Shown in pieces: positions 32,164 to 44,851 of a stretch of 64,000 bases of DNA. The stretch lies in NCBI RefSeq assembly GCF_019890615.1, contig NZ_JAINVZ010000019.1:62001-126000 (forward strand), in the 5' to 3' direction. A program made the translations under genes and the position numbers. Every line of letters starts with the position of its first letter. Positions within the stretch are counted from its first letter, which is position 1. The notes beneath the pieces were generated by a model, which did no database searches, was not told the DNA's origin, and was given only the letters and a program-made list of their open reading frames with translations. Origin of the DNA: Streptantibioticus parmotrematis. Its GTDB lineage: Bacteria; Actinomycetota; Actinomycetes; Streptomycetales; Streptomycetaceae.

Positions 32164-32508
32164 ATGCGGGAAGCCGGCGTTACGATTCGGAACGCGTGCC
32201 CCACCTCGGTGTGGGAGCACCTTCTCGACGGTGCCCACCACCGCCTCACTTTCGCGGGTTACACCAACTACTTCCTGTGGCAGCAGCATCCGCGGCTGGG
32301 GGACCGGCTGCGGACCAAGGTGGAATCCGGCTGCCGCGTGCGGTTCCTTCTCGGGGACCCGGAATCCGAGGTCACCCGGCGACGTGAGGAAGCCGAGGGC
32401 GTGCCGCTCACGGTGTCCACGCGCATCCGCATCACGCTCGACGCGCTCGACCGGGTGGACCGGGCCGCTGGAACGCCGTCTGGTCGCGGACGTCAGGACT
32501 TCGAGTAG
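32164..32508 (+). pseudogene. Truncated DUF5919-type C-terminal fragment of an XRE regulator
   Basis: From ATG 32164 the frame gives 114 residues matching the start of the DUF5919-like (phospholipase-D-like) domain: VWEHLLDGAHHRLTFAGYTN, LGDPESEVTRRREE, VSTRIRITLDAL. The usual XRE head is absent, and after DRVD the family sequence continues only in the +1 frame (GPLERRLVADVR), then stops at the LysR gene. It looks like a relic truncated at both ends with an internal frameshift near 32465. Confidence 0.6.
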
Positions 32509-33368
32509 GGCAAGGCGTCGATCACGGCTGCGATGGCGGGCTCGGCGGCGCGGTCGCGGTGGTGGGCTGCCATGAGGTCGACGTGCCACTCGGGCATATC
32601 GCTCACACCGAGCTCGACCAGGGTGCGCTGAGCGAGGTCGCGTTCGACGGTGGCGCGGGTGAGTACGGCGACGGCCTGCCCGGAGCGCGCGAGATCGGCC
32701 GCGGTTTCCGCGGAGCTGATGCGGTAGAGCTGGTGCGCCGGGATGGGGGCGTCCAGGAGCCGTTCCTGGAAGAGGGCCGCTCCGCTGCCCCAGAGGTTCA
32801 CCGCGATGGGGTGGCCACTCAGTTGGGTGATGGTGCAGGGCTGTTGCGCGAGGGGGTGGTCCGGGCGGCAGACAGCGATGACCGGCTCGCTGCGGAACTT
32901 CTTCAGTCGCACCTCGTGGGCGTGCGGGACCGGCAGTGTGATGGCGATGTCGGTCGTCCCCTCGGCGACTCGCTGAACCGCGTTCCGGCTGTGTTGGTCG
33001 TCGACCACGACGGCGTACCTGAGCGGCTGGAGGGCGCCGATGACGAACGGAACGGCCAGCGGGGCATAGCTGGCGTGGGTGGTCAGGTGCAGGGTCCCCT
33101 GGGTGTCGTCCTCCCCGGCGACGGTCAGGGCGTGCGTCGCCAGAGCCAGGCATCGCTCCGCGTGGGGCAGGAGCCGTTGCCCCGCGGGGGTCAGTGACAC
33201 TCCTCGGCTCGACCGGTGGACCAGCGGCTGACCGACGAGCCGTTCCAGCCGGCGCAGTCGCTCGCTGATGGACGGCTGTGTGACCCTCAGCTCGCGTGCC
33301 GCGGCTGACAGTGAGCCGACGGAGGCAGCGGTGACGAAGACGCGCAGATCAGCGAGCTCCAATGCCAT
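32493..33368 (-). CDS. LysR-family transcriptional regulator
   Basis: 291 residues from ATG 33368 (GTG 33374 is an alternative). The winged helix-turn-helix spans residues 4-62 with SVGSLSAAARELRVTQPSISERLRRLE; the two-lobed periplasmic-binding-like effector domain follows (about residues 88-290). It diverges from a GNAT acetyltransferase, its probable target. A perfect palindrome covers its own start codon, suggesting tight autoregulation. Confidence 0.9.
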   Translation of the reverse strand: MALELADLRVFVTAASVGSLSAAARELRVTQPSISERLRRLERLVGQPLVHRSSRGVSLTPAGQRLLPHAERCLALATHALTVAGEDDTQGTLHLTTHASYAPLAVPFVIGALQPLRYAVVVDDQHSRNAVQRVAEGTTDIAITLPVPHAHEVRLKKFRSEPVIAVCRPDHPLAQQPCTITQLSGHPIAVNLWGSGAALFQERLLDAPIPAHQLYRISSAETAADLARSGQAVAVLTRATVERDLAQRTLVELGVSDMPEWHVDLMAAHHRDRAAEPAIAAVIDALPYSKS

Positions 33369-33383
33369 AGGCACACCCTATGG
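33365..33383. promoter_or_regulatory. Palindrome CCATAGG-CACAC-CCTATGG overlapping the LysR start
   Basis: Perfect 7-bp arms; the left arm includes the LysR ATG. A partial half-site CCATAG recurs near 33426, nearer the GNAT gene. Fits a LysR recognition/activation-site pair (inference). Confidence 0.5.
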
Positions 33384-33476
33384 CCAGCTGCCTCGGATCA
33401 AGGGGTTCTGCGGGGTGTGCGGCACCCATAGCGTGCCCGTGCAAGTGATTTCCCCTTGGTCTGAGGAGTCTTTCCG

Positions 33477-34034
33477 GTGCGCGAAACCCACGAAGCGACT
33501 GTCGAACTCACCCTCGCGGCTGCGGGCGATCTCGCCGGCGTAGTCGAAATTCAGAACTTCACGGCCGCGACCTCACATGCCCGGTTCGCCACCCAGCCGT
33601 CCAGTGTGGAGCAGCAGCGTGACTGGTTTGCGCAGTTCGCGAAGACAGGTCCGTATCGGATGCTCGTCGCCCGCCGTGGTGACCAGGTCCTCGGTTATGC
33701 GTGCAGCCAGCGCTATCGCGATCAGGAAGCCTTCCGGGAAACGGTAGAGGTGAGCATCGGGCTCCGCGAGGGCAGTAGGGGACAGGGGATCGGGACCGCC
33801 CTTTACCGCGCGCTCTTCGGCCTGCTGGCCGACGAACCGGTTCACGTCGCCCTCGCCGGAATCGCCCTGCCGAACGACGCGTCGGTGGCATTGCACCGCA
33901 AGTTCGGCTTCGCCGGGATCGGGACTTTCCACGAGTATGCGGTGAAGAACGGCCGGTACGTGAGCTCCTTGTGGATGGAGCGCTTGCGGCCCGCTTCGTT
34001 TCCGGAGCCGGAACAACCCGGTCCGGTGTCGTGA
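33477..34034 (+). CDS. GNAT N-acetyltransferase (phosphinothricin-acetyltransferase-like)
   Basis: 185 residues from GTG 33477. Acetyl-CoA pyrophosphate loop REGSRGQGIGTALYRAL (about residues 98-114) and NDASVALHRKFGFAGIGTF (motif B, with the FxxxG turn) are typical of the PAT group, which acetylates phosphinothricin, methionine sulfoximine or similar amines. The true substrate is unknown. Divergent LysR gene probably controls it. A strong inverted repeat overlaps its stop codon. Confidence 0.85.
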   Translation: MRETHEATVELTLAAAGDLAGVVEIQNFTAATSHARFATQPSSVEQQRDWFAQFAKTGPYRMLVARRGDQVLGYACSQRYRDQEAFRETVEVSIGLREGSRGQGIGTALYRALFGLLADEPVHVALAGIALPNDASVALHRKFGFAGIGTFHEYAVKNGRYVSSLWMERLRPASFPEPEQPGPVS

Positions 34035-34049
34035 TCGGAACCGGACCGG
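34018..34049 (+). terminator. Hairpin at the end of the GNAT gene
   Basis: Perfect 10-base arms CCGGTCCGGT / ACCGGACCGG with a 12-base loop that contains the GNAT stop codon. Confidence 0.65.
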
Positions 34050-34424
34050 AGTGCTGGGACGGCCAGGAAATGTTGTCGTTTTCATCATCCCGCGTGGGAT
34101 GTCGCAGAGCGGCACGGGCTTCGCGCCAGGCCGAGAGCAAGTCGGGGAGCTGTCGGAGGAGGGCGGCTGCGCGGGTGATCGAGAGACCCAGGAAGCCGAA
34201 GACCGCCAGGACACCACTGGTTGCGACGTGATCCCGGATGGCGTATGGGGAGGCGGAGGGCGGTCACGGTGGCTGCGGTCGCCCGGTGTCCCAGTCGTGT
34301 CGGTATGTACGTGTTTCGACCTGCGAGCCCGGAACGCCCCCGGCATCATGGGAAGCGAGGGCGCGGAACAGCGGCCTGATTCGACTCCCTGCGGGGAGAC
34401 CGCCTACGTGGAACGGGACGGTCC
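34050..34424. other. 375-bp region without an intact gene
   Basis: On the minus strand, about 34250-34085 encodes a gene-like stretch (YAIRDHVATSGVLAVFGF, then LLRQLPDLLSAWREARAAL) with one hydrophobic helix but no start codon; it is bounded upstream by a stop. It may be a decayed small membrane-protein gene. Otherwise nothing was recognised. Confidence 0.35.
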
Positions 34425-34892
34425 ATGAGCGAGCAGCAGACCCCCGGCGCATCCGGACCCGTCGCGCGGACCCTGGGCGAGGAGGAGTGCCTGCGGCTGA
34501 TCGCGCCCGGCGGCATCGGGCGGGTCGCCTACAGCGGGCGCTACGACCTCACCGTCCTGCCGGTCAACTTCCGCCTCTACGAAGGCGACATCGTGTTCCG
34601 CACCGAAGAGGGCAGCACGATGGACGAGGACCTGCGCAGCGGCATCCCCGACGCCGCGTACGAGGTGGCCTTCCAGGTGGACGACTTCGACGCCGACACC
34701 GAGCAGGGCTGGAGCGTGCTGGTCCACGGGCCCGCCTACCACGTCGTGGACGAGCAGGAACGCGACGCGCTGTCCGGGGCGGGCGTGCGCCCGTGGGCTC
34801 CCGGTGAACGCCGGCTGTTCTTCCGCATCAAGCCCCACCGTGTCTCCGGCCGCTGGGTACGCGGCGGGGGCGGCGGGGGCGGCGACGAGTGA
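34425..34892 (+). CDS. Pyridoxamine 5'-phosphate oxidase-fold (FMN/F420-binding) protein
   Basis: 155 residues with a split-barrel fold: LGEEECLRLIAPGGIGRVAYSGRYDLTVLPVNFRLY style start, IVFRTEEGSTM phosphate-contact region and WSVLVHGPAYHV strand. Relatives are small flavin- or F420-dependent proteins, often of unknown substrate and stress-induced. The C-terminus is a Gly run. ATG 34425. Probably not part of the RiPP locus 420 bp downstream. Confidence 0.85.
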   Translation: MSEQQTPGASGPVARTLGEEECLRLIAPGGIGRVAYSGRYDLTVLPVNFRLYEGDIVFRTEEGSTMDEDLRSGIPDAAYEVAFQVDDFDADTEQGWSVLVHGPAYHVVDEQERDALSGAGVRPWAPGERRLFFRIKPHRVSGRWVRGGGGGGGDE

Positions 34893-35313
34893 ATTCGGTC
34901 GGCTGAATTCCCTGTTCCGGATTCCTGGATCTTTTTCGGGCTGCCTTGTCGGTGACCTTCGTGGGACGGTCTTCGCCGGGTGGTTTCTGATCTTCGCGGC
35001 GTGGTTTCCGGCCGTTCGGGAAATGACGCATTCCGGGCGGGCGTACGTCCCGTGGGGTGTGGATCCGACGATTCCGGCGGCTCCTACCTGCGCATACGGG
35101 GCCCACCTGCGCTGTTCTCGCGTCGTTCGGGAAACGTACCGACGGGCCTTGTCCTATGCCTCGGGCCGCTGCTAGCCTTCCGGGGATTTCGTGGATATTC
35201 CGTGTTCATTCGGTAATGCGTGCCTCTGGTGACGCATTACCTTGATCGGCCGTCCCGGGGGTTCGCGTCATGCGTCATGGCGGTTTCGCGGCACGTCGCA
35301 CATTCCCGCGCCT
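34893..35313 (+). promoter_or_regulatory. 421-bp leader region upstream of the RiPP locus
   Basis: Noticeably AT-richer than its surroundings, with several TTCC and TTCGG runs and no supported gene. It ends in a perfect 10-bp-arm inverted repeat (35212-35241) 72 bp before the exporter start. This must hold the promoter of the RiPP operon. Confidence 0.5.
35212..35241. promoter_or_regulatory. Inverted repeat GGTAATGCGT-N10-ACGCATTACC
   Basis: Perfect 10-bp arms with a 10-bp centre, 72 bp upstream of the exporter ATG 35314. It could be an operator or a leader-RNA hairpin. No regulator gene lies in the locus. Confidence 0.55.
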
Positions 35314-36600
35314 ATGACAGCGCGAGCGGCGGAAACGGTCACGGTCGGCGCTCCGGGAACACGGGACTTCCGGCTCTACTGGAGTGCCGACGCCGTCGAC
35401 CGGCTCGGCACGCAGATGTCCCAGATCGCGTTACCGCTGCTCCTGCTGGACGCGGGCGGCTCCGCGGCGCGGGCCGGGCTGATGGCCACGCTCGCGGGGG
35501 CCGGTGGCGTGGCGGCCGGACCGGTCGCGGCGGCGCTGGCGGACGGGCGGTGGCGGGGGCCGATGATGCGGTGGTCCTCGCTGGCCGCCGCGACCGCGAT
35601 GGGGTGGGCGACCCTCACCGTGCTCGGCCACCGGATCTGCCTGCCGTGCCTGGTCGGCGCCCTGCTGGTGGAACGGGTCGCCGCGTCCTGCTTCGAGGCG
35701 GCCGCCGCGGGCAGCGTGGCGCGGCTCGTACCGCCCGAGTGGTACCCGCGGGCGGTGGCCCGCCTCCAGGGGGGTGAGCAGGGCGGCGCGATCGCCGGTC
35801 CGGCGCTGGCCGGGCTGCTGCTGCGGCAGGCCAGGGCCCTGCCGTTCCTCGCCGACACGGTCTCGTACCTGGCCGCCGCGTTCCTCGTACGGGCGATCCG
35901 CACCGATCTGGCGCCGCCCGCCGCCTCGGACGCCGCGACCGTTCCGGGGCAGCGGTTCGGGCGCCGGACGGTCGCGGGCGTCGGCTTCGTGCGCACCAGC
36001 CCGTTCCTGCGCTTCCTGCTGGTCTGGTCGTGCGGCGTCAACGCCCTGCTGGCGCTGCTGAGTTACACCACCGTCTTCGTTGTCCACGCCGCGCACGGCA
36101 GCGCGTCGGTCGGGCTCGTGCTGGGCGCGGCGGCCGGGGCCGGGCTGCTCGGCTCGCTGCTCGCACCGGTGGCGGTGCGCCGGGTGCGCGGGGGCGTGCT
36201 GGTGGTCGCGCTGTCCTGGCTGACCGTGCCGGCCGCGGCCGGGCTCGCGCTCGCCGGTCCCGCCTGGGTCTGCGGCGCGCTGCTCGGCCTCGTCGCGCTG
36301 CTGGTCCCGTCCGTCGCCGTGGTGTTGCACGCCCGGGCGGTACGCGTCGTCCCGCAGCACCTCCAGGCGCGGGTCGCGACGGTGGCCGGGACCGCGACGG
36401 CGGCGGTGGCCATGGCGGCGCCCGCGCTGGCCGGGGCGCTGACGGACACCGTGGGCCCGGCCACCGTCGACCTCGCCTGCGCCGCCGGTCTCGCCCTGCT
36501 GGCGCTGTACGCGGCGACGGGCCCGGCCGCCCGCCTCGACGCCCCGGCCACCCCGGTCGAGGCGGCCCCCGACGACCCGAGCGCCCTGGAGCGAGGATGA
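35314..36600 (+). CDS. MFS exporter of the RiPP locus (contains a TTA codon)
   Basis: 428 residues, 12 predicted helices, of the MFS group that includes enterobactin and macrolide exporters (start FRLYWSADAVDRLGTQMSQIALPLLL). Leu40 is encoded by TTA (35431-35433), a codon that needs the bldA tRNA in Streptomyces and is typical of developmentally controlled secondary-metabolite genes. The stop overlaps the next start (ATGA), so the S9 peptidase is coupled to it. Likely exports the mature peptide or supplies immunity (inference). Confidence 0.85.
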   Translation: MTARAAETVTVGAPGTRDFRLYWSADAVDRLGTQMSQIALPLLLLDAGGSAARAGLMATLAGAGGVAAGPVAAALADGRWRGPMMRWSSLAAATAMGWATLTVLGHRICLPCLVGALLVERVAASCFEAAAAGSVARLVPPEWYPRAVARLQGGEQGGAIAGPALAGLLLRQARALPFLADTVSYLAAAFLVRAIRTDLAPPAASDAATVPGQRFGRRTVAGVGFVRTSPFLRFLLVWSCGVNALLALLSYTTVFVVHAAHGSASVGLVLGAAAGAGLLGSLLAPVAVRRVRGGVLVVALSWLTVPAAAGLALAGPAWVCGALLGLVALLVPSVAVVLHARAVRVVPQHLQARVATVAGTATAAVAMAAPALAGALTDTVGPATVDLACAAGLALLALYAATGPAARLDAPATPVEAAPDDPSALERG

Positions 36601-38525
36601 CCGCCGCCCGCCCCGCTGTCCGCACGACGGAAGCGACCCGCCCCGCCCCCGCCCGCGACTTCCAGGTCTTCCGCCCCGCCCTCCCGCAGGCCGCCCGCCG
36701 CGCACCGCACCGGATGGTCTTCACCGGCGACGCGGACGGCCGTTGCGAGGTCTTCACCTGGGACAGCCGCGCCGCCGCCGCACGCCAGGTGACGAGCCGT
36801 CCGCACGGCACCTTGCGCTGCGCGGTCGGCGCCGACGGCACGGTGTGGTGGTTCGACGAGGACAGCGACGGCCGGGGCCGCTGGATGCTCCAGGACTTCG
36901 GCGGCGGCCCCGACACCCCGGCGCTGGCGGGCCTGCCCGCCGGACACCCGCGCGGTCTCGCGATCAGCGACTCCGGCACCGCCGCGATCGGCCTGGCCGA
37001 GGGGCCGGGGCTTGCTGAAGAAGGGGGTCCTGCCGAAGGCCGGGCTCCCGCAGAAGGGCCCGGCCTCGCCGTCCACCTCGGCCCGCCCGGCGGACGCGTG
37101 GAGCACGTGGTCCGCACCGGATATCCCGCCACGCTCGTCGACATCGCCCCGAACGGCGCCCTGCTGGCGGTCACCGGCGGGTCCGGGAGCGCGCACGCGG
37201 CCGTGCTGCTGCGGCCCGACGGGCACGTCGTCGCCGCGCTGCCGGGGTGCGACGAGGCGCTGTGGCCGCTGGGCTTCCGCACCGCGCCAGGCACCACGTC
37301 AGGTGCCGGCGCCCCGCCAGGCACTCCAGGCCCCGCCCCCGCCCCCGAACTGCTCCTCGTCGTCCGCTCCGGTGACGGCTACCGGCTGGCCACCTGGACC
37401 CCGGAGCGGGGACTGCGCCGGCACGCGTGGTGCGCGTTCGACACCGAGATGACCGCTCGCTGGTACCCGGGCCGCCGCCAGGCGCTCGTACGCCGCAACC
37501 GCGGCGGACGCAGCGAGCTGTACCGCGCCGACCTCGACCGGGCTGTCCTGGAGCCGCTGCGCGTACCGCCGGGCGCGGTGCTCGACGCGGTGCCGCGCGA
37601 GGACGGCGACGTGCACTACCTGTGGACCGACGCCCTCACGCCGCCCGTCGCGGTGTCGTCGCGCGGCACGCCGCTGCCGCAGCCGATGGCCGACCCGCCC
37701 CGGGTGCCCGGGCGCGCCCTGGAGGTGTGGACGCCGGGTCCCGACGGTGACGCCCACACCCTGCTCACCGTTCCCGAAGGCGCGCGGGCGCCGTACCCCA
37801 CCGTCTTCCTGGTGCACGGCGGCCCGGGCGAGCACGACCGCGACGCCTACGACCCGGCCGTGCACTCGCTGGTCGCCTCGGGGCTCGCCGTCGCCCGCGT
37901 CAACTACCGCGGTTCCACCGGCTACGGGCCGCGGTGGCGGGACGCCTGGCGCGAAGGGGTCGGCCTCACCCAGGTCGCCGACCTCGCCGCGGCCCGCGAC
38001 CACCTGGTGCGCGACGGCCTCGCCGACCCCGGCGCCACCGGCCTGTGGGGCACGTCCTGGGGCGGCTACCTCGTGCTGCTGGCGCTCGGCACCCGGCCGG
38101 AGCTGTGGCAGGCGGGGGTGGCCGTCAAACCGGTGGCCGACTACCCGATGGCGCACCGCGACGGCACCCCCCGGCTGCGCGCCCTCGACGAGCGGCTGTT
38201 CGGCGGCACCCCGCTCCAGGCCCCGGAGCGCTGGGCGCGTTCGTCCCCGGTGACCTACGCCGCGCGGGTCCGCGCACCGCTGCTGGTGGTCGCCGCGCGC
38301 CGGGACGCCAAGTGCCCGCCCGCGCAGGTCGAGTCGTACCTCGCCGCGCTGCGCGGCCACGGCGTCCCGTACGAGTCGATGTGGCTGGGCACCGGCCACG
38401 ACGGCCTGGACGGCCGGGACCACCTGAAGGTCCTGCGCCACTCCCTGGTCTTCCTGTCCCGGCACCTGAACGGTCCCGGGCCCGGAAGGAACGACCCCAA
38501 CCGAACCGCGACCACAAGGAGTTGA
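36597..38525 (+). CDS. S9-family prolyl-oligopeptidase-like peptidase
   Basis: 642 residues. An N-terminal beta-propeller-like part (to about residue 385) precedes an alpha/beta-hydrolase domain with catalytic Ser487 (GTSWGGY), Asp570 (ARRDAKCPP) and His601 (GTGHDGLDG). No signal peptide, so it acts in the cytoplasm. ATG 36597 overlaps the exporter stop, and the candidate precursor starts 5 bp after its stop. Leader removal from the modified precursor is the obvious role (inference). A short Gly/Ala/Pro repeat (around residues 140-160, AEGPGLAEEGGPAEGRAPAE) interrupts the propeller. Confidence 0.88.
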   Translation: MTAARPAVRTTEATRPAPARDFQVFRPALPQAARRAPHRMVFTGDADGRCEVFTWDSRAAAARQVTSRPHGTLRCAVGADGTVWWFDEDSDGRGRWMLQDFGGGPDTPALAGLPAGHPRGLAISDSGTAAIGLAEGPGLAEEGGPAEGRAPAEGPGLAVHLGPPGGRVEHVVRTGYPATLVDIAPNGALLAVTGGSGSAHAAVLLRPDGHVVAALPGCDEALWPLGFRTAPGTTSGAGAPPGTPGPAPAPELLLVVRSGDGYRLATWTPERGLRRHAWCAFDTEMTARWYPGRRQALVRRNRGGRSELYRADLDRAVLEPLRVPPGAVLDAVPREDGDVHYLWTDALTPPVAVSSRGTPLPQPMADPPRVPGRALEVWTPGPDGDAHTLLTVPEGARAPYPTVFLVHGGPGEHDRDAYDPAVHSLVASGLAVARVNYRGSTGYGPRWRDAWREGVGLTQVADLAAARDHLVRDGLADPGATGLWGTSWGGYLVLLALGTRPELWQAGVAVKPVADYPMAHRDGTPRLRALDERLFGGTPLQAPERWARSSPVTYAARVRAPLLVVAARRDAKCPPAQVESYLAALRGHGVPYESMWLGTGHDGLDGRDHLKVLRHSLVFLSRHLNGPGPGRNDPNRTATTRS

Positions 38526-38530
38526 CCGTC

Positions 38531-38653
38531 ATGCAGAAGGACATCATCGACAACGACCCGCTCGTCGAGGCCGACGAGTCGAGAAGCGTCGGCGTGATCG
38601 TGGGCGTCCGCATCCCGTTCCGCGAGGCGGAGACCACCGAAGAGCAGATCTGA
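38531..38653 (+). CDS. Candidate RiPP precursor peptide (40 residues)
   Basis: ATG 38531 has an AAGGAG ribosome site nine bases upstream, and the gene fits exactly between the S9 peptidase stop (38525) and a strong hairpin. The product begins MQKDIIDNDPLVEADE, an acidic leader-like part, followed by SRSVGVIVGVRIPF and an acidic tail REAETTEEQI. It lacks Cys and Trp and has one Phe, so thioether or lanthionine rings are ruled out. The Val/Ile/Gly/Phe segment is the most likely core to be altered by the radical SAM enzyme encoded next. No known precursor family was recognised. Confidence 0.78.
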   Translation: MQKDIIDNDPLVEADESRSVGVIVGVRIPFREAETTEEQI

Positions 38654-38672
38654 CGCATCGTCACCAATGGTC

Positions 38673-38708
38673 CCGCCGGACGCGCGTGCTCCCGCGCGCG
38701 TCCGGCGG
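38673..38708 (+). terminator. Attenuator-type hairpin between precursor and maturase
   Basis: Perfect 14-base stem (CCGCCGGACGCGCG with CGCGCGTCCGGCGG) and 8-base loop, 20 bp after the precursor stop and 99 bp before the radical SAM start. A partial terminator at this point commonly makes precursor mRNA exceed enzyme mRNA in RiPP operons. Confidence 0.75.
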
Positions 38709-38731
38709 CACCGGTGACCCCGACCGCCCCA

Positions 38732-38790
38732 CACAGCACGAGCACAGCACGAGCACAGGACAAGCAACAGGACAGGCACAGGACAGCGAA
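38732..38790 (+). repeat. Short tandem A/C/G repeats in the maturase leader
   Basis: Two copies of GCACAGCACGA-like sequence are followed by three ACAGGACA units. The stretch is purine-rich and unstructured, directly upstream of the ribosome site of the maturase. Confidence 0.5.
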
Positions 38791-38807
38791 GGAAGCAGAG
38801 GCAAGCC

Positions 38808-40757
38808 GTGCGCGTACTCCTGGTCAACATGCCGTGGTCGCCCGTCGACCTGCCGTCGCTCGCGCTCGGCATCCTGAAACGGGCCGTCAACGAGCGGGTG
38901 CCCGGCGCCGAGGCGGAGGTGCTGCACGCCAACCTGGAGTACGTCGACTGGCTCACCGCCGCCGACCCCGGCTTCGGGTACGCGGACTACGACTACTACG
39001 CGCTGTCCTCGTACTTCCTCGGCTGCGGCGACTGGGTCTTCTCCTCCGCCCTCTACGACGACCCCGAGTGGCGGGTGGCCGAGTTCAGCGCGGCCATGGG
39101 CGCGAAGATCGGCGAGGAGCGGCTGGAGACCTCCCTGCGCCTGCACGCCGAGGCGCCGCGCTTCGTGGCCCGCGTCGTCGACCAGATCATCCAACGGCAG
39201 CCGGACGTCGTCGGGTTCAGCTCCACGTTCCAGCAGAACACCGCCGCCCTCGCCGCCGCCCGCCACCTCAAACGGCTCGCCCCGCACATCGTCACGGTGA
39301 TGGGCGGCGCCAACTGCGACGGCGAACAGGGCGCCGCCGCGCACCGCAACTTCCCGTTCGTGGACTACGTGGTGCGCGGCGAGGGCGAGGCGTCCTTCCC
39401 CGCGCTGGTGACCGCGTTGCGCGACGGGACCGGCACCGACGCCATCCCCGGGGTGTGCCGCCGCGACGGCGAGCGGTCGGTGGCGAACCCGATGGCCACC
39501 GCGCCGCTGCCGCCCGCCGCGATCCTGCCGCCCGACTACTCCGGCTACTTCGAGCGCCTCGCCGCGTCCACCGCGCGCTCCTGGGTCGAACCCAAGCTGG
39601 TGGTCGAGGGCGCCCGCGGCTGCTGGTGGGGCGAGAAGCACCACTGCACCTTCTGCGGGCTCAACGGCTCGTTCATGGAGTTCCGCAGCAAGAGCCCGGA
39701 CACCTTCCACGACGAGATCATCGACCTGGTCCGCGAACACCGGGTCCTCGACATGTACCTGGTCGACAACATCCTCGACATGGGCTACCTCACCAGCGTG
39801 CTGCCCCGGATCATCGACAGCGGCTACGACCTGCGCATGCACGTCGAGATCAAGGCCAACCTCAAGAGCGCCCAGCTGCGCACCCTCGCCGACGCGGGCC
39901 TGGTCTTCGTCCAGCCGGGCATCGAGAGCCTGGGCGACCGCGTGCTCGACCTGATGGACAAGGGCGTCAGCGGATGCCAGAACATCCGCATGCTGCGCGA
40001 CGGCCAGGCCGCCGGTCTCTCGGTCTTCTGGAACTACCTGCACGGCTTCCCCGGCGAACAGGACACCGACTACGACCCGGTGATCGCCCAACTCCCCGCG
40101 CTGGAACACCTCGACCCCCCGGTCGACCAGTCCGCGCGGATCGCCATCGAACGCTTCAGCCCCTACTTCACCCGCCCCGAACTCGGCTTCTCCGAGCTGC
40201 GCCCGGCCCTGCCGTACCGCGTCACCTACGACCTGCCGGAGTCCGAACTGCTTGACCTGGCCTACGTCTTCGACGTCCCGCCGCGCGGCATCGGCGAGGC
40301 GACCACCGCCCGGCTCAACGCGGCCCTGCGCGTCTGGCAGGAGGGGCACCCCGGCAGCAGGCTCACCCACGTCGACCTCGGCGACCGCATCGTGCTGGCC
40401 AGCAGGCGCCGCGCGTTCGCCTGGCGCGCGCACGAGATCACCGACCCGGTCGAGCTCGCCGCGTTCCGGCTGCTGGACCAGCCGCACACCCTCGCCGCCC
40501 TCACCCGCAAACTCGCCGCCCGGGTGGACGGCGAGGCACCCGACGCCTCCGCGGTGCTGGGAATCCTCGACCGCTGGCTGGACCTGGGCCTGCTCTTCAC
40601 CGACGCGGGCTCCTACATCCACCTCGCCCCGCGCTCGGTCAACGACGACCTGCTCAGGCTGGGATTCCTGCGGGCCCTGGACGCGGACGGCGCGCCGGTG
40701 GCCGCGACCGGGGACGAGCCGCAAGCGACGGCGGAACGCGCCCCGGTGACGGTCTGA
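38808..40757 (+). CDS. RiPP maturation radical SAM protein (B12-binding type, rSAM ocin_1-like)
   Basis: 649 residues from GTG 38808. The N-terminal cobalamin-binding-type Rossmann domain (about residues 85-205; PDVVGFSSTFQQNTAA, VMGGANCDG, VVRGEGEASFPAL) precedes a radical SAM barrel whose cluster cysteines are Cys272, Cys280 and Cys283 in GARGCWWGEKHHCTFCGLNG. This C-x7-C-x2-C form is that of RiPP maturation radical SAM protein 1 (TIGR03975). A C-terminal extension (about residues 490-640) resembles a helical winged module that may bind the leader. Chemistry may be C-methylation or another radical step on the precursor at 38531. Confidence 0.9.
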   Translation: MRVLLVNMPWSPVDLPSLALGILKRAVNERVPGAEAEVLHANLEYVDWLTAADPGFGYADYDYYALSSYFLGCGDWVFSSALYDDPEWRVAEFSAAMGAKIGEERLETSLRLHAEAPRFVARVVDQIIQRQPDVVGFSSTFQQNTAALAAARHLKRLAPHIVTVMGGANCDGEQGAAAHRNFPFVDYVVRGEGEASFPALVTALRDGTGTDAIPGVCRRDGERSVANPMATAPLPPAAILPPDYSGYFERLAASTARSWVEPKLVVEGARGCWWGEKHHCTFCGLNGSFMEFRSKSPDTFHDEIIDLVREHRVLDMYLVDNILDMGYLTSVLPRIIDSGYDLRMHVEIKANLKSAQLRTLADAGLVFVQPGIESLGDRVLDLMDKGVSGCQNIRMLRDGQAAGLSVFWNYLHGFPGEQDTDYDPVIAQLPALEHLDPPVDQSARIAIERFSPYFTRPELGFSELRPALPYRVTYDLPESELLDLAYVFDVPPRGIGEATTARLNAALRVWQEGHPGSRLTHVDLGDRIVLASRRRAFAWRAHEITDPVELAAFRLLDQPHTLAALTRKLAARVDGEAPDASAVLGILDRWLDLGLLFTDAGSYIHLAPRSVNDDLLRLGFLRALDADGAPVAATGDEPQATAERAPVTV

Positions 40758-40815
40758 CCCCTTCGCCCCGCCCCCGCGCATCCCCAACTGCCGCCGACGA
40801 CAGGAGACTTCCGCC

Positions 40816-41490
40816 GTGACCACCGCCGCCCACGCCACCGCCGCCCATGCCGACGCCTCCTGCGCGCGCGTCCTCGCCTGGCGGGACTACGACCCGGCCG
40901 TCCGCACGCTGGACGGGATGTGCCTGGGCACCGTCGAGGTGGACGGCGAACCCGCCGAGGCCGCACGGCGGTTGTGGGACGCGGGCGCGCGCCGGGTGGA
41001 GCTGCCCGGGACGGTGGACCTGGCCGGCCCCCGTGATCCGGTCGCCACCGTGTGGGCGCTGTGCCTGGTGCGCGACCTGACCGCGCTCGGCGTCGTCGTG
41101 GACTGGCGGCTGAGGCTCGCCCCGGGCACCGACTGGCGCACCCTGTCCCACCTCCAGCCGCCGCGCGCCACGACCGGCACCCCGGACGACACCGAGGTCC
41201 CCGGCCGGTGGCGGCACGGCTACTACCTGGGCAAGTGCCTGTGGCGGCGCGGCCCCGGCTTCGTCCAGATCCGCGACCGGCGCTGGGGCGCGCTGCACCG
41301 CTTCACCGTCGACGAGCCCGAGTACCAGGAGGCGATCGCCCTGCTGTCCTGCGGCGCCCCGCGCTCGGCCGTGCCGCCCGCCGTCCTGGCCGACCTGGAG
41401 CAGGAGCGCCTCGTCGGCTCGGTCGGCGGGCAGGCGTGGTTCCTGCCCTACCGGGTGCGGCGCTGGGCCAAGGGCGCCATCACCCTGTGA
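40816..41490 (+). CDS. DUF5825-family protein, RiPP maturase partner
   Basis: 224 residues from GTG 40816 with an AGGAGA site. Recognised by LAWRDYDP, WDAGARRVELPGTVDLA, GYYLGKCLWRRGPGFVQIRDRRWG and DEPEYQEAI, the pattern of DUF5825 proteins encoded next to TIGR03975-type radical SAM enzymes. No catalytic motif is visible; Cys-containing KCLWR segment is conserved. It may bind the precursor or assist the maturase. Last gene of the locus, 58 bp after the maturase; it converges on the kinase gene 13 bp away. Confidence 0.8.
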   Translation: MTTAAHATAAHADASCARVLAWRDYDPAVRTLDGMCLGTVEVDGEPAEAARRLWDAGARRVELPGTVDLAGPRDPVATVWALCLVRDLTALGVVVDWRLRLAPGTDWRTLSHLQPPRATTGTPDDTEVPGRWRHGYYLGKCLWRRGPGFVQIRDRRWGALHRFTVDEPEYQEAIALLSCGAPRSAVPPAVLADLEQERLVGSVGGQAWFLPYRVRRWAKGAITL

Positions 41491-41503: not shown

Positions 41504-43288
41504 TCAGCAGCGGGTGTCGGGGCCCGACTGTCCCGTGAGGTGGTTCGACACGATCCAGCCCGCGGTGTCCGACCCGGCGATCCGCACGTAGTACCACTTG
41601 TTGCCGTAGGCGTTGTCGACGTAGCAGTGGTACCAGAGCTTGGTCTTGGCGGTCTTGATCTGCGTGACGTGCGAGCAGTCCCCGTACGGTCCGGAGAACA
41701 GGTTGTAGTTGCCGCCGGAGGTGTAGCCGTACGTGCCGGGGTTCGGGTCCTGGTGGGTCCAGCCGCCGCAGCCCGTGGACGCGGTGCTCGGGGACGGCGC
41801 GGAGGTCACCGGGGGCGCGCCGCCGCCCGCGGTGGACGAGGGCGCGGGGCCGCCGGAGGCACCGGGCCCGCCCGGCGTCTGCGAGGCGGCACCGGAGGCC
41901 CCGGCGCCGGACGGCGCGGACGAGGCCGAGGGGCCGGCCGAGGTCATGCCGTGGACCGGCTTGCCCATGCTGGGCGAACCGTCGGCGACGGGCAGGCTGA
42001 TGGCGGGCAGCGCCGCCGGGCCCGAGCCACCCGTGCCGTCGCCCGCCGAGCCGTGCGTGCCCACGAGCGCGTACGCCACGCCGCCGCCCGCGATCACCAC
42101 GGCCGCCGCCGCGGCGGCGACGACGGTCCTGCGGGCCCGCCGGTCCGCGCCGGGCGACGACTTCCGCCCGGCGTCCGCACCACCTCGGGCGGCGGCGGGA
42201 CGCGGGACGGTGGTCTCCAGGCCGCCGGGGGTGTACCCGGCCCGCCCGGACGGCTGCGCGGGGAGCCCGGCGGGTGCCGCGTACCCGCCCGGCGCGGGCG
42301 GTGCCGGTGGCGTCCGCGCGGGAGGCGGCCCGAAGGCGCCCGCCGGGGCGGGGGCGGGGGAAGAGTACTGCGACAGGTCCATCGTGTCGCCTGCGGCCAC
42401 CGCCTCCAGCAGCTCACGTGCCCGCTCGGCGTCCGGCCGGTCCTGCGGCTCCTTCGCCATCAGCGCCCGCAGCACCGGTGTCAGCGCCCCGGCCCGCCGG
42501 GGCTCCGGCAGCGGATCGCTCACGATGGCGGTGAGCGTGGAGAGCACCGAGGGACGGCGGAACGGCGAGGCGCCCTCCACGGCCGCGTACAGCGTCATGC
42601 CCAGCGACCAGATGTCGGAGGCGGGGCCCGGCTCGTGGCCCTGGGCGCGCTCCGGGGGCAAGTAGTCGAGCGAGCCCACGAGTTCACCGCTGCGGGTCAG
42701 CTTGGAGACCGCCTCCTCGCCGCCCGCCTCCACGCTGGCGATGCCGAAGTCGGTGAGCACGACCCGGCCGCCGCGCTCCAGCAGCACGTTGCCCGGCTTG
42801 ACGTCGCGGTGCAGCACACCGGCGCGGTGCGCCGCGGCGAGCGCGTCCATCAACCGGGCGCCGATCCCGGCCGCCTCCCGCGGGTCCAGCGTGCCGCGTT
42901 CGGCCAGCACGTCGTCGAGCGAGGGACCGTCGACCAGTTCCATCACGATGACCGGGAGGCCCTGGTCCTCGATCACGTCGTGCACGGTGACGACACCCGC
43001 GTGCCGGATGCGCGCGGCGGCCTGCGCCTCGCGCCGCATCCGCTCGCACAGGTCGGCCAGTTCGTGCGGGGAGGCGTCGGTGTACGCGCGCAGGATCTTG
43101 ACCGCCACCTCGCGGCCCAGCACCTCGTCCACCGCCCGGCCGACGACTCCCATGCCGCCGCGGCCCAGCGTCCGCGTCACCCGGTAGCGCCCGCCCAGCA
43201 CCCTGCCGGCCGGCTCGCCGCCGAACCCGTCCCCCTCGGTCACCCGCGCGCTCCGTTCCTCGAAATCCCTGGAATCCTCGGTCCCCAT
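41504..43288 (-). CDS. Membrane Ser/Thr protein kinase with extracellular SH3-like domain
   Basis: 594 residues. Kinase domain (about residues 34-300): P-loop GRGGMG, Lys64 in VAVK, catalytic loop His160-Arg161-Asp162 (HRDVKPGN), Asp180-Phe-Gly. A Pro/Ala/Gly-rich juxtamembrane part leads to one membrane helix (about residues 388-410), a Ser/Gly/Pro linker, and an outer Cys-containing domain (about residues 505-594: CGGWTHQDPN, WYHCYVDNAYGNKWYYVRI, GWIVSNHL) that resembles bacterial SH3 wall-binding domains rather than PASTA repeats. A PknB-like sensor of the cell surface (inference). Confidence 0.92.
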   Translation of the reverse strand: MGTEDSRDFEERSARVTEGDGFGGEPAGRVLGGRYRVTRTLGRGGMGVVGRAVDEVLGREVAVKILRAYTDASPHELADLCERMRREAQAAARIRHAGVVTVHDVIEDQGLPVIVMELVDGPSLDDVLAERGTLDPREAAGIGARLMDALAAAHRAGVLHRDVKPGNVLLERGGRVVLTDFGIASVEAGGEEAVSKLTRSGELVGSLDYLPPERAQGHEPGPASDIWSLGMTLYAAVEGASPFRRPSVLSTLTAIVSDPLPEPRRAGALTPVLRALMAKEPQDRPDAERARELLEAVAAGDTMDLSQYSSPAPAPAGAFGPPPARTPPAPPAPGGYAAPAGLPAQPSGRAGYTPGGLETTVPRPAAARGGADAGRKSSPGADRRARRTVVAAAAAAVVIAGGGVAYALVGTHGSAGDGTGGSGPAALPAISLPVADGSPSMGKPVHGMTSAGPSASSAPSGAGASGAASQTPGGPGASGGPAPSSTAGGGAPPVTSAPSPSTASTGCGGWTHQDPNPGTYGYTSGGNYNLFSGPYGDCSHVTQIKTAKTKLWYHCYVDNAYGNKWYYVRIAGSDTAGWIVSNHLTGQSGPDTRC

Positions 43289-43318: not shown

Positions 43319-43537
43319 CTACGGGCGTGTCGCGCCCCGTACCACCAGGTCGTCCAGCAGCCGCGCGGTCGCCTCGGCGATCTCCTCGACGGCCCGGTCG
43401 AACACCTCCCGGTTGTGCGCGGCGGGCGCCCGGAAACCGGACACCTTGCGCACGTACTGGAGCGCCGCCGCCCGGATGTCGGCCTCCCCCACGGCCTCGG
43501 TCACCGGCGGCCTGAGTGTCTTGATGCTGCGGCACAT
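43319..43537 (-). CDS. DUF2277-family small protein
   Basis: 72 residues starting MCRSIKTLRPP, the diagnostic opening of DUF2277, with one Cys at position 2 and a helical remainder (IRAAALQYVRKVSGFRAP). Widespread in actinobacteria; function unknown. ATG 43537. Confidence 0.88.
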   Translation of the reverse strand: MCRSIKTLRPPVTEAVGEADIRAAALQYVRKVSGFRAPAAHNREVFDRAVEEIAEATARLLDDLVVRGATRP

Positions 43538-43609: not shown

Positions 43610-44851
43610 TCAGCCCAGCAGCACCGGCAGTTCGCGGTGGCCGTTGGAGATGAACGAGCTGACCGGGCGCAGCTCGCTCTCCGGGACCGCCAGCCGGGCG
43701 TGCGGGAAGCGCTCGAAGAGGGCGGGCAGCGCGATCGACGCCTCCAGCCGGGCCAGCGGCGCGCCCAGGCAGAAGTGCACGCCGTGACCGAAGGCCAGGT
43801 GCTCCTTGTCGACGCGGGTCACGTCGAAGTCGGCGGCGTCGGCGCCGTGCCGGGCGGTGTCGTGCCCGGCGGCCTGGTAGCCGGCGAGGATCGGCTCGCC
43901 CTTGCCGATGGTCACGCCGTCCAGCTCGATGTCCTCGACCGCGTAGCGCAACGGCAGATGGGCGACCGGGGCGCGGTGGCGCAGCGACTCCTCGATCACG
44001 TCGTCCCAGCCCACCGCGCCGGAGCGGACCAGTTCCCGCTGGTCGGGGTGGGTCAGCACGGCGTGCACGGCGTTGTCGATGAGGTTGACCGTGGTCTCGT
44101 GGCCCGCGCTGATGACCAGCAGCAGGGTGTCGACCAGTTCCTGCTCCGACAGCTTCGTGCCGCCGTCCTCCTCGCGGGTGGCGATCAGCAGGCTGGTCAT
44201 GTCGTCGGCGGGCTCGCGCCGCTTGACGGCGACCAGTTCGGTCAGCAGGGCGTGGATCGCGTGGTACGTCGCGAGCGCCTCCTCCGGGGTGCTGGAGGTG
44301 GCGAAGACGCCGTCCACGGCGGTGCGCAGCGGCTCGCGCAGCCTTTCGGGCACGCCGAACAGCTCGCAGATGACCTGGATCGGGATCGGGTACGCGTACC
44401 CCTCACGCAGGTCGACGGCCGTGCCCTCGGGGGTCCGCGCGAGTCCGTCCAGCAGGTCCTGGGCGATCCGCTCGATCCTCGGGCGCAGCGCGGCGGTGCG
44501 ACGGGCGGTGAAGGCGGGCGCCACCAGCTTGCGCAGTCTGCGGTGGTCGTCGCCGTACGCGGTGAACATGTTGGTCACCGCCACCCACGTGAACAGCTGC
44601 CAGTCCTGCGGGATCTCACCGGCTGTGAACGCCGGCCAGTGCTGCTTGGGGTCCTTGGAGACCCGGGGATCGGTCAGCAGCCGCTTGAGCAGTTCGGCGT
44701 CGCCTACCGACCACGCCACCACCTGGCCAGGAAGTTCCACCCGCGTCGCCGGCCCGCGCCCGGCGATCCGCCGGGCCTCGCCGGGGATGTCGGTGCCTGC
44801 GGGGTCGATGACGTAAGGGGCGAGCTCGGTCGTGCCTGACTGCTGGTCCAT
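43610..44851 (-). CDS. Cytochrome P450 (CYP154-like), conservon-associated
   Basis: 413-residue haem-thiolate monooxygenase. I-helix oxygen motif AGHETT, K-helix EESLR (EXXR present), haem ligand Cys in FGHGVHFCLGAPLARLE. Its 5' end overlaps the 3' end of the upstream P450 gene by 148 bp. CYP154-type P450s are known to occur beside CYP157 members at the end of conservons. Electron donors are not encoded next to it. Substrate unknown. Confidence 0.92.
   Translation of the reverse strand: MDQQSGTTELAPYVIDPAGTDIPGEARRIAGRGPATRVELPGQVVAWSVGDAELLKRLLTDPRVSKDPKQHWPAFTAGEIPQDWQLFTWVAVTNMFTAYGDDHRRLRKLVAPAFTARRTAALRPRIERIAQDLLDGLARTPEGTAVDLREGYAYPIPIQVICELFGVPERLREPLRTAVDGVFATSSTPEEALATYHAIHALLTELVAVKRREPADDMTSLLIATREEDGGTKLSEQELVDTLLLVISAGHETTVNLIDNAVHAVLTHPDQRELVRSGAVGWDDVIEESLRHRAPVAHLPLRYAVEDIELDGVTIGKGEPILAGYQAAGHDTARHGADAADFDVTRVDKEHLAFGHGVHFCLGAPLARLEASIALPALFERFPHARLAVPESELRPVSSFISNGHRELPVLLG

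What the first reader, a model, noticed from the sequence alone, without database searches (positions are those of the whole stretch)
35314..41490. Compact radical SAM RiPP locus with a 40-residue, Cys-free precursor
Seen: exporter, S9 peptidase (ATGA-coupled), a 40-codon gene with its own AAGGAG site, a hairpin, a C-x7-C-x2-C radical SAM protein with a B12-type N-terminal domain, and a DUF5825 protein, all on one strand in 6.2 kb. Known: TIGR03975-type enzymes and DUF5825 proteins co-occur in RiPP loci. Inferred: the hydrophobic SRSVGVIVGVRIPF part is the modified core; C-methylation at Val/Ile/Phe or a carbon-carbon link are candidates because no Cys or Trp is present.
Basis: partly seen in the sequence, partly recalled or inferred. 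Interest (0 to 1): 0.88.

Follow-up and report, generated by a model that had tools for sequence, protein, structure and literature searches.

The report
Clavusporin-type methylated-peptide operon in Streptomycetaceae
This is a five-gene bacterial operon that very probably makes a short greasy peptide decorated with extra methyl groups; it is a divergent member of a recently described Streptomyces peptide family rather than a new kind of system.

Summary
In detail: exporter, S9 peptidase, 40-codon peptide gene, hairpin, B12 radical SAM enzyme and DUF5825 gene lie in this order on one strand. Its leader is near-invariant and its core alternates: positions 2, 4 and 6 are Ile or Val in 59 of 59 distinct cores that could be put in register. 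A very stable hairpin follows the precursor stop in 72 of 76 sequences. Two papers tie the same parts to clavusporins: a homologous B12-rSAM/DUF5825 pair C-methylates, and an S9 prolyl oligopeptidase, MpcP, removes the leader (passages). Best reading: a clavusporin-type (mpc) operon; C-methylation at alternating Val/Ile, leader cut by the S9 enzyme, MFS export. The primary paper was not held, so the published precursor was not compared. Unusual here: the core (GVIVGVRIPF; no Thr, an Arg) and Val, not Pro, before it. Other DUF5825 loci appear to use about five other precursor types (by eye).

The parts
35149..35178 (+). promoter-like TTGTCC-18-TAGCCT upstream of the exporter gene
   Evidence: Read by eye from the window sequence printed. 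TTGNNN-17/18-TAGNNT occurs in 37 of 71 upstream regions of related loci against a mean of 0.32 of 71 in Markov-resampled sequences; the pattern was chosen after seeing enriched words in the same regions, so the contrast is not an independent test.
35314..36600 (+). MFS exporter gene (428 aa)
   Evidence: PF07690 3.2e-20; homologue in 71 of 80 loci
36597..38525 (+). S9 prolyl-oligopeptidase-family peptidase gene, proposed leader peptidase (MpcP-like)
   Evidence: PF00326 2.2e-37; Ser487, Asp570, His601 conserved in 66 of 66 aligned proteins; homologue in 76 of 80 loci; ATGA overlap with the MFS gene
38516..38521 (+). AAGGAG ribosome-binding site of the precursor gene
   Evidence: sequence
38531..38653 (+). 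precursor peptide gene, 40 aa
   Evidence: complete homologues in 75 of 80 loci; identical DNA, 123 of 123 bases, in L001
38531..38590 (+). leader MQKDIIDNDPLVEADESRSV (residues 1-20)
   Evidence: K3, D4, P10 and L11 invariant in 60 of 60 distinct precursors; the leader/core border is inferred
38591..38620 (+). core GVIVGVRIPF (residues 21-30); candidate methylation sites Val22, Val24, Val26, Ile28
   Evidence: core positions 2, 4 and 6 are I or V in 59 of 59, position 8 is V/I/L/F in 58 of 59; the sites themselves are inferred
38669..38712 (+). long GC hairpin between precursor and maturase (inner 16-bp stem 38673-38708)
   Evidence: of 76 sequences (75 loci and the window) 72 reach -30 kcal/mol, 63 lie below all 40 shuffles, median z -4.3; controls reach -30 in 1 of 36 rSAM-DUF5825 gaps, 17 of 71 stretches after DUF5825 and 10 of 67 S9 coding stretches
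38808..40757 (+). B12-binding radical SAM RiPP C-methyltransferase gene (GTG start)
   Evidence: TIGR03975 594.8 bits, E 1.8e-178; PF02310 and PF04055; nearest solved structure by sequence TokK, 1.8e-13
39621..39656 (+). C-x7-C-x2-C cluster motif (C272, C280, C283)
   Evidence: invariant columns; motif present in 113 of 113 related proteins
40464..40595 (+). PqqD-like winged-helix stretch at the maturase C-terminus, a possible leader-binding site (weak)
   Evidence: PF05402 E 0.022-0.024, below its cut-off
40816..41490 (+). DUF5825 gene, partner of the maturase
   Evidence: PF19142 3.5e-72; model pLDDT 91, pTM 0.88; homologue in 79 of 80 loci

Best explanation
This is a clavusporin-type (mpc) RiPP operon. 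A 40-residue precursor is made from a gene sitting between the peptidase and maturase genes. The B12-dependent radical SAM enzyme, acting with DUF5825, recognises the conserved leader (M-Q-K-D-I-I-x-N-D-P-L) and adds methyl groups from SAM via methylcobalamin to unactivated carbons of the alternating Val/Ile residues in GVIVGVRIPF. The S9 oligopeptidase removes the leader in the cytosol and the MFS protein exports the product. The hairpin after the precursor stop probably lets more precursor than maturase be made from one transcript. The product is likely an amphiphilic surface-active peptide used in colony development, as reported for clavusporins. Shown here: gene content, order, conservation, core pattern, hairpin. 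Inferred from homologues in print: the chemistry and the role of the S9 enzyme. Transferred from a paper title and memory: the developmental role. The methylation positions, leader recognition, order of cleavage and export, and hairpin function are inference.
For: TIGR03975 (RiPP maturation radical SAM C-methyltransferase) far above cut-off, DUF5825 next to it. [quoted passage not shown] PMC12951456, passage: MpcP, a PF00326 prolyl oligopeptidase, acts in removal of the clavusporin leader. All five genes in 69 of 80 loci. Complete precursor in 75 of 80. Alternating Ile/Val pattern 59 of 59. S9 triad 66 of 66. Hairpin in 72 of 76.
Against: The clavusporin paper (PMC12306966) is not held, so the window precursor could not be compared with the published one. 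In the window and 5 other distinct precursors the residue before the core is Val rather than Pro (53 of 59 have Pro), which fits poorly with a peptidase that cuts after Pro at that place. L072 has maturase and DUF5825 but no such precursor, S9 or MFS; L080 has a divergent precursor but no S9 or MFS, so the peptidase and exporter are not obligatory. No chemistry was observed.
Confidence: 0.87

Rival explanations
1. The maturase forms a carbon-carbon cross-link in the peptide instead of, or besides, methylating it.
For: A B12-rSAM (PbsB) that cross-links ortho-Tyr residues is reported in PMC12257519 (abstract and passages), so the enzyme class can do this. The core holds one Phe.
Against: The window core has one aromatic residue and no Tyr, Trp or His; the Phe column is F in 38 of 59 only. 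The protein scores 594.8 bits to the model TIGR03975, named C-methyltransferase; that name is an annotation, not a test. The DUF5825-paired enzyme is the one reported to methylate.
Confidence: 0.05
2. Same chemistry, but the product is not a developmental surfactant: it is an antibacterial or a signal.
For: Many RiPPs are antibacterial (general knowledge). The window core has no Thr and carries an Arg, so its properties may differ from its relatives. No surface activity was measured here.
Against: The host genome has other morphogen genes (9 chaplin-domain matches; one class III lanthipeptide synthetase over the cut-off), which fits a developing actinomycete but does not exclude this rival. 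[quoted passage not shown] that it is the clavusporin paper I matched by position and memory.
Confidence: 0.2
3. The short peptide is a carrier on which a small molecule is built (pearlin-like), and the conserved part is only a scaffold.
For: Carrier-peptide pathways exist; a paper on them (PMC9303977, search listing and start of abstract only) also holds the term radical SAM C-methyltransferase.
Against: None of the five proteins matched a peptide aminoacyl-tRNA ligase-type model, and the constraint is on the internal Val/Ile register, not on the C-terminus, which varies in length and sequence.
Confidence: 0.03

Closest known systems
Clavusporins / mpc operon (Zhang, Li, Overton, Seyedsayamdost, Nat Chem Biol 2025; paper not seen, known from passages and reference lists of PMC12257519 and PMC12951456)
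   Same: Paired B12-rSAM and DUF5825; an S9 prolyl oligopeptidase of PF00326; a short hydrophobic peptide
   Different: Compared with its relatives, the window core GVIVGVRIPF has no Thr, has Ile at core position 3 and Gly at position 5 (each 1 of 59) and Arg at 7 (4 of 59), and Val instead of Pro before the core (6 of 59). Whether this differs from the published precursor could not be checked.
TIGR03975 rSAM_ocin_1 (RiPP maturation radical SAM C-methyltransferase)
   Same: Full-length match, 594.8 bits, C-x7-C-x2-C, B12-binding domain
   Different: None found; the paired DUF5825 is not part of the model
Biphenomycin-like (pbs/YHxYxY) loci, PMC12257519
   Same: Those with YHxYxY precursors encode a second B12-rSAM and a DUF5825 protein (passage)
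   Different: They have an MNIO and aromatic core motifs; neither is among the five window proteins
SapB / class III lanthipeptide morphogens
   Same: Streptomycete surface-active RiPP idea (recalled); FlaP, a prolyl oligopeptidase, acts in leader removal of a class III lanthipeptide (passage)
   Different: No lanthipeptide synthetase among the five proteins and no Cys in any of 60 distinct precursors

Membership tests
Clavusporin-type (mpc) RiPP | B12-rSAM C-methyltransferase gene next to a DUF5825 gene | tested here: met
   reported for clavusporins in PMC12257519 (passage)
Clavusporin-type (mpc) RiPP | S9 prolyl oligopeptidase (PF00326) for leader removal | tested here: met
   gene present: PF00326 2.2e-37, triad 66 of 66; MpcP in PMC12951456 (passage). 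Activity not tested.
Clavusporin-type (mpc) RiPP | Precursor homologous to the published clavusporin precursor | not testable with these tools
   paper not held
Clavusporin-type (mpc) RiPP | C-methylation at unactivated carbons of the peptide | not testable with these tools
   needs mass spectrometry
Clavusporin-type (mpc) RiPP | Surface activity and effect on development | not testable with these tools
   needs purified peptide and mutants
TIGR03975 RiPP radical SAM C-methyltransferase | Score above curated cut-off over the full profile | tested here: met
   594.8 against 281.85 bits, profile 1-605 of 606
TIGR03975 RiPP radical SAM C-methyltransferase | B12-binding domain and three-Cys radical SAM motif | tested here: met
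   PF02310 5.5e-12, PF04055 7.6e-9; Cys columns invariant, motif in 113 of 113 relatives
DUF5825 (PF19142) | Score above gathering cut-off | tested here: met
   242.4 against 25 bits
Triceptides (rSAM/SPASM cyclophane RiPPs) | SPASM domain maturase (recalled feature) | tested here: not met
   no SPASM model among Pfam or NCBIfam matches up to E 0.1
Class III lanthipeptide (SapB-like) | LanKC gene in the block and Cys in the precursor (recalled features) | tested here: not met
   no such match among the five proteins; no Cys in 60 distinct precursors
RRE (PqqD-like leader-binding domain) in DUF5825 or the maturase | Recognisable PqqD-type winged helix | tested here: inconclusive
   maturase C-terminus PF05402 E 0.022, below cut-off, and another helix-turn-helix model (HTH_20, best E 0.00098) does better over the 25 relatives; DUF5825 residues 139-201 align to ThcOx Z 4.8, rmsd 2.3 over 59 residues, Z under 8

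The most novel reading that the evidence does not exclude
The maturase/DUF5825 pair is a general short-leader C-methylation module that has been re-used on at least six precursor types in Streptomycetaceae. It reads a small N-terminal motif (K-x-I/V-I/V-x-x-D-P and variants) through winged-helix domains in DUF5825 and the maturase C-terminus, and methylates every second residue of a beta-strand-like core. The window is a lineage in which the core has become cationic and Thr-free.
Probability: 0.35. Interest if true: 0.55.

Novelty: new member of a known kind. Interest (0 to 1): 0.38.

Why it matters
It links a common orphan gene pair of Streptomycetaceae (DUF5825 of any type is in 88 of 394 sampled genomes of the family, the window's own included) to a described C-methylated peptide class and supplies 60 natural precursor variants. 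These make the rule for which residues are methylated directly testable: branched residues at core positions 2, 4, 6 and 8 are kept while those between them vary. The wider set of DUF5825-paired precursors is a list of candidates for new methylated peptides.

Tried and rejected
Structure of the maturase: the model was poor (mean pLDDT 62.4, pTM 0.61), so no fold search was made with it. Whole-model Foldseek with DUF5825 gave nothing at E 0.001 or better; the VIA second look gave only weak rows (3h92 Z 5.8, NifB 4.9, ThcOx 4.8), so RRE is an idea and not a finding. A profile of the DUF5825 C-terminus found no solved relative (best E 1.5); one of the maturase C-terminus found four chains, best FurB at E 0.051. 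Phylum-wide search: 6 of 396 genomes matched DUF5825 at E 0.001 and 4 were over the cut-off, these four all of the window's own family and one of them the window's genome; no wider spread was seen in that sample. The tree (quick method) places the window with L001 as a separate branch among the MQKD-precursor loci, but 30 of 110 inner branches are open and the exact place is unsure. Papers: a term search for precursor strings found only an unrelated paper; DUF5825 is in 2 papers and clavusporin in 3 of the open-licence library. No claim is made that any of this is absent from print.

Considered and rejected: cross-linking as the main reaction, carrier-peptide function, lanthipeptide morphogen (see rivals and membership rows).
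Full report
Observation. The exporter is an MFS protein and the peptidase an S9 (PF00326) enzyme whose start overlaps the exporter stop (ATGA). The maturase is a full-length TIGR03975 protein, 594.8 bits against a cut-off of 281.85, with B12-binding and radical SAM domains. The last gene is DUF5825 (PF19142, 3.5e-72). The precursor ORF is 38531-38653; it matched no family model.

Is the small ORF a gene? Yes. The maturase query found 519 relatives in the species-genome collection, of which the best 80 were kept, all titled Streptomyces. In 75 of these 80 a complete ORF of the same family lies upstream of the maturase; with the window there are 77 genes and 60 distinct sequences. Of the five misses, L014 and L042 are broken by runs of N (in L042 the leader is still legible), L032 and L051 start at contig ends, and L072 lacks it along with S9 and MFS. 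All five genes are found in 69 of 80, always on one strand. L080 has a divergent precursor but no S9 or MFS match; L037 and L053 lack the MFS match. The typical precursor is MQKDIIHNDPLAGDEENRKPGIGITVTVPFRNAEDGEED. K3, D4, P10 and L11 are the same in 60 of 60. In the closest relative, L001 (Streptomyces sp. ICBB 8177), the 123 bases of the precursor gene are identical, while 6 to 13% of codons differ silently and 4.5 to 11% by replacement in the four neighbours.

The core. Aligning from the conserved Arg18, 59 of 60 distinct precursors can be put in register (L080 cannot). Core positions 2, 4 and 6 are Ile or Val in 59 of 59, and position 8 is V, I, L or F in 58 of 59. Positions 1, 3, 5 and 7 hold Ile/Val in 0, 1, 9 and 0 of 59. 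The sequences are related, so these are not independent events. The window reads G-V-I-V-G-V-R-I-P-F in this register. None of the 60 has Cys, one has Trp, seven have Tyr. Small or polar residues alternating with beta-branched ones is what one expects if the branched residues are the substrate sites or one face of a strand. That they are the methylation sites is inference.

What is known. [quoted passage not shown] PMC12951456 (passages seen) says that MpcP, a prolyl oligopeptidase of pf00326, acts in removal of the clavusporin leader. [quoted passage not shown] that this is the clavusporin paper I matched by its place in the lists and by memory. It is not held. From memory only, its abstract calls the operon widespread in actinomycetes and the peptides surfactants that aid aerial growth. 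Three of the window's parts (B12-rSAM, DUF5825, PF00326 peptidase) match; the precursor could not be compared. I file the window as a new member of this kind, with that defining feature untested.

Mechanism. The S9 protein keeps its catalytic Ser, Asp and His in 66 of 66 aligned proteins, and its first residues show no hydrophobic signal stretch by eye (sequence printed), so cleavage in the cytosol before export is likely. The residue before the core is Pro in 53 of 59 and Val in 6, the window among them; either the enzyme tolerates Val or it cuts elsewhere, for instance at the invariant Pro10. This remains open. Against Pro10 as the cut site, the D-P pair is also kept in precursors whose fetched stretch shows no S9 match (L123-L126).

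Leader recognition. DUF5825 gives a confident model (pLDDT 91) with no clear solved relative. Its C-terminal part aligns weakly with winged-helix proteins, among them the N-terminal part of the cyanobactin oxidase ThcOx (Z 4.8, 59 residues, rmsd 2.3), which I recall as an RRE. The window maturase C-terminus has PqqD as its only Pfam match, at E 0.022, below the cut-off; across 25 relatives 4 match PqqD (best 0.0087) and 4 HTH_20 (best 0.00098) at E up to 1, so a winged helix is likelier than PqqD kinship in particular. Both are hints only.

Expression. Of 76 stretches after the precursor stop (75 loci and the window), 72 hold a hairpin of -30 kcal/mol or lower and 63 lie below all 40 dinucleotide shuffles, median z -4.3. 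Controls reach -30 in 1 of 36 (maturase to DUF5825 gaps of 46-250 bases), 17 of 71 (after DUF5825) and 10 of 67 (inside the S9 gene). The stem sequences differ between loci, so the structure rather than the letters seems kept. A run of four T is absent from the window's stretch and present in 3 of 76, so it is not a classical terminator; partial termination and protection of the upstream message are both possible. Upstream of the exporter a TTGNNN-17/18-TAGNNT pair occurs in 37 of 71 loci against 0.32 in resampled sequences (pattern chosen after looking); the window has TTGTCC-18-TAGCCT at 35149-35178 (read by eye).

Distribution. DUF5825 of any type is in 88 of 394 sampled genomes of the window's family and over the cut-off in 4 of 396 sampled across the phylum, all of the same family and one of them the window's genome. 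The window's genome has one DUF5825 and one TIGR03975 gene over the cut-off, and 9 chaplin-domain matches and one class III lanthipeptide synthetase over the cut-off. In the maturase tree the window and L001 form a separate branch among the loci with MQKD-type precursors.

Other precursor types. All 40 have a related radical SAM gene. For 31 of them small ORFs before the maturase were listed; by eye 22 show a plausible precursor and 9 do not (L119-L121, L127, L135-L137, L141, L157). Besides the MQKD type there are MEKTVVTSDPQ...VEVGITVKF peptides, which end in the same alternating pattern; MKRRSIQNDPISTPERDRGAVVVQNF... peptides, most beside an S9 gene; MEIKKVVVRED...AILEKRPTR peptides; MKKRT.Q...GRW[LM]V peptides; and MKKDVIKGDKL...IGVTVRIPI. 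These were picked by eye from ORFs with a ribosome-binding-like site, without a control. The shared K-x-I/V-I/V start is suggestive of one recognition mode.

Verdict. Interest is moderate: a divergent core, a strong core rule, and a hairpin conserved across the family. Confidence was set to 0.87 instead of 0.88 on recheck, because L080 and L072 show that S9 and MFS are not obligatory.

Noticed in passing
L123, L124, L125, L126 (upstream of the maturase): DUF5825/rSAM loci with short precursors such as MEKTVVTSDPQSNERESVKVEVGITVKF, two of the four (L125, L126) with two precursor genes; the alternating branched core lies at the C-terminus.
   Followed up: partly
L149, L151-L155: DUF5825/rSAM loci with an S9 peptidase match and a different precursor, MKRRSIQNDPISTPERDRGAVVVQNFALDITKAAPVAPALKG.... 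L150 has a related ORF but no S9 match.
   Followed up: partly
L128-L131, L133, L134: Divergent DUF5825/rSAM loci with a 27-28 residue frame (M/V)EIKKVVVRED...PAILEKRPTR directly before the maturase.
   Followed up: no
L122, L156: Short ORFs MKKRTIQLEKRTDHSTGADRGRWLVHGGNE and MKKRTVQSTDSAAGSGRWMVWAAPAARK before DUF5825-paired maturases; L122 appears to have two copies.
   Followed up: no
L011 upstream of 10001: Two different precursor genes in tandem before one maturase (cores GVSVKVTIPL and GVSVSVSRRR).
   Followed up: no
L058: A canonical MQKD-type locus lies on a record titled Streptomyces nigrescens HEK616 plasmid SNP1, so the operon can be plasmid-borne.
   Followed up: no
window 41504-43288 (-), 43319-43537 (-), 43610-44851 (-): Downstream, on the other strand: a Ser/Thr protein kinase, a DUF2277 protein and a cytochrome P450; nothing ties them to the operon.
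   Followed up: partly
window 32493-34892: Upstream: a LysR regulator, a GNAT acetyltransferase and a pyridoxamine 5'-phosphate oxidase-like protein.
   Followed up: partly
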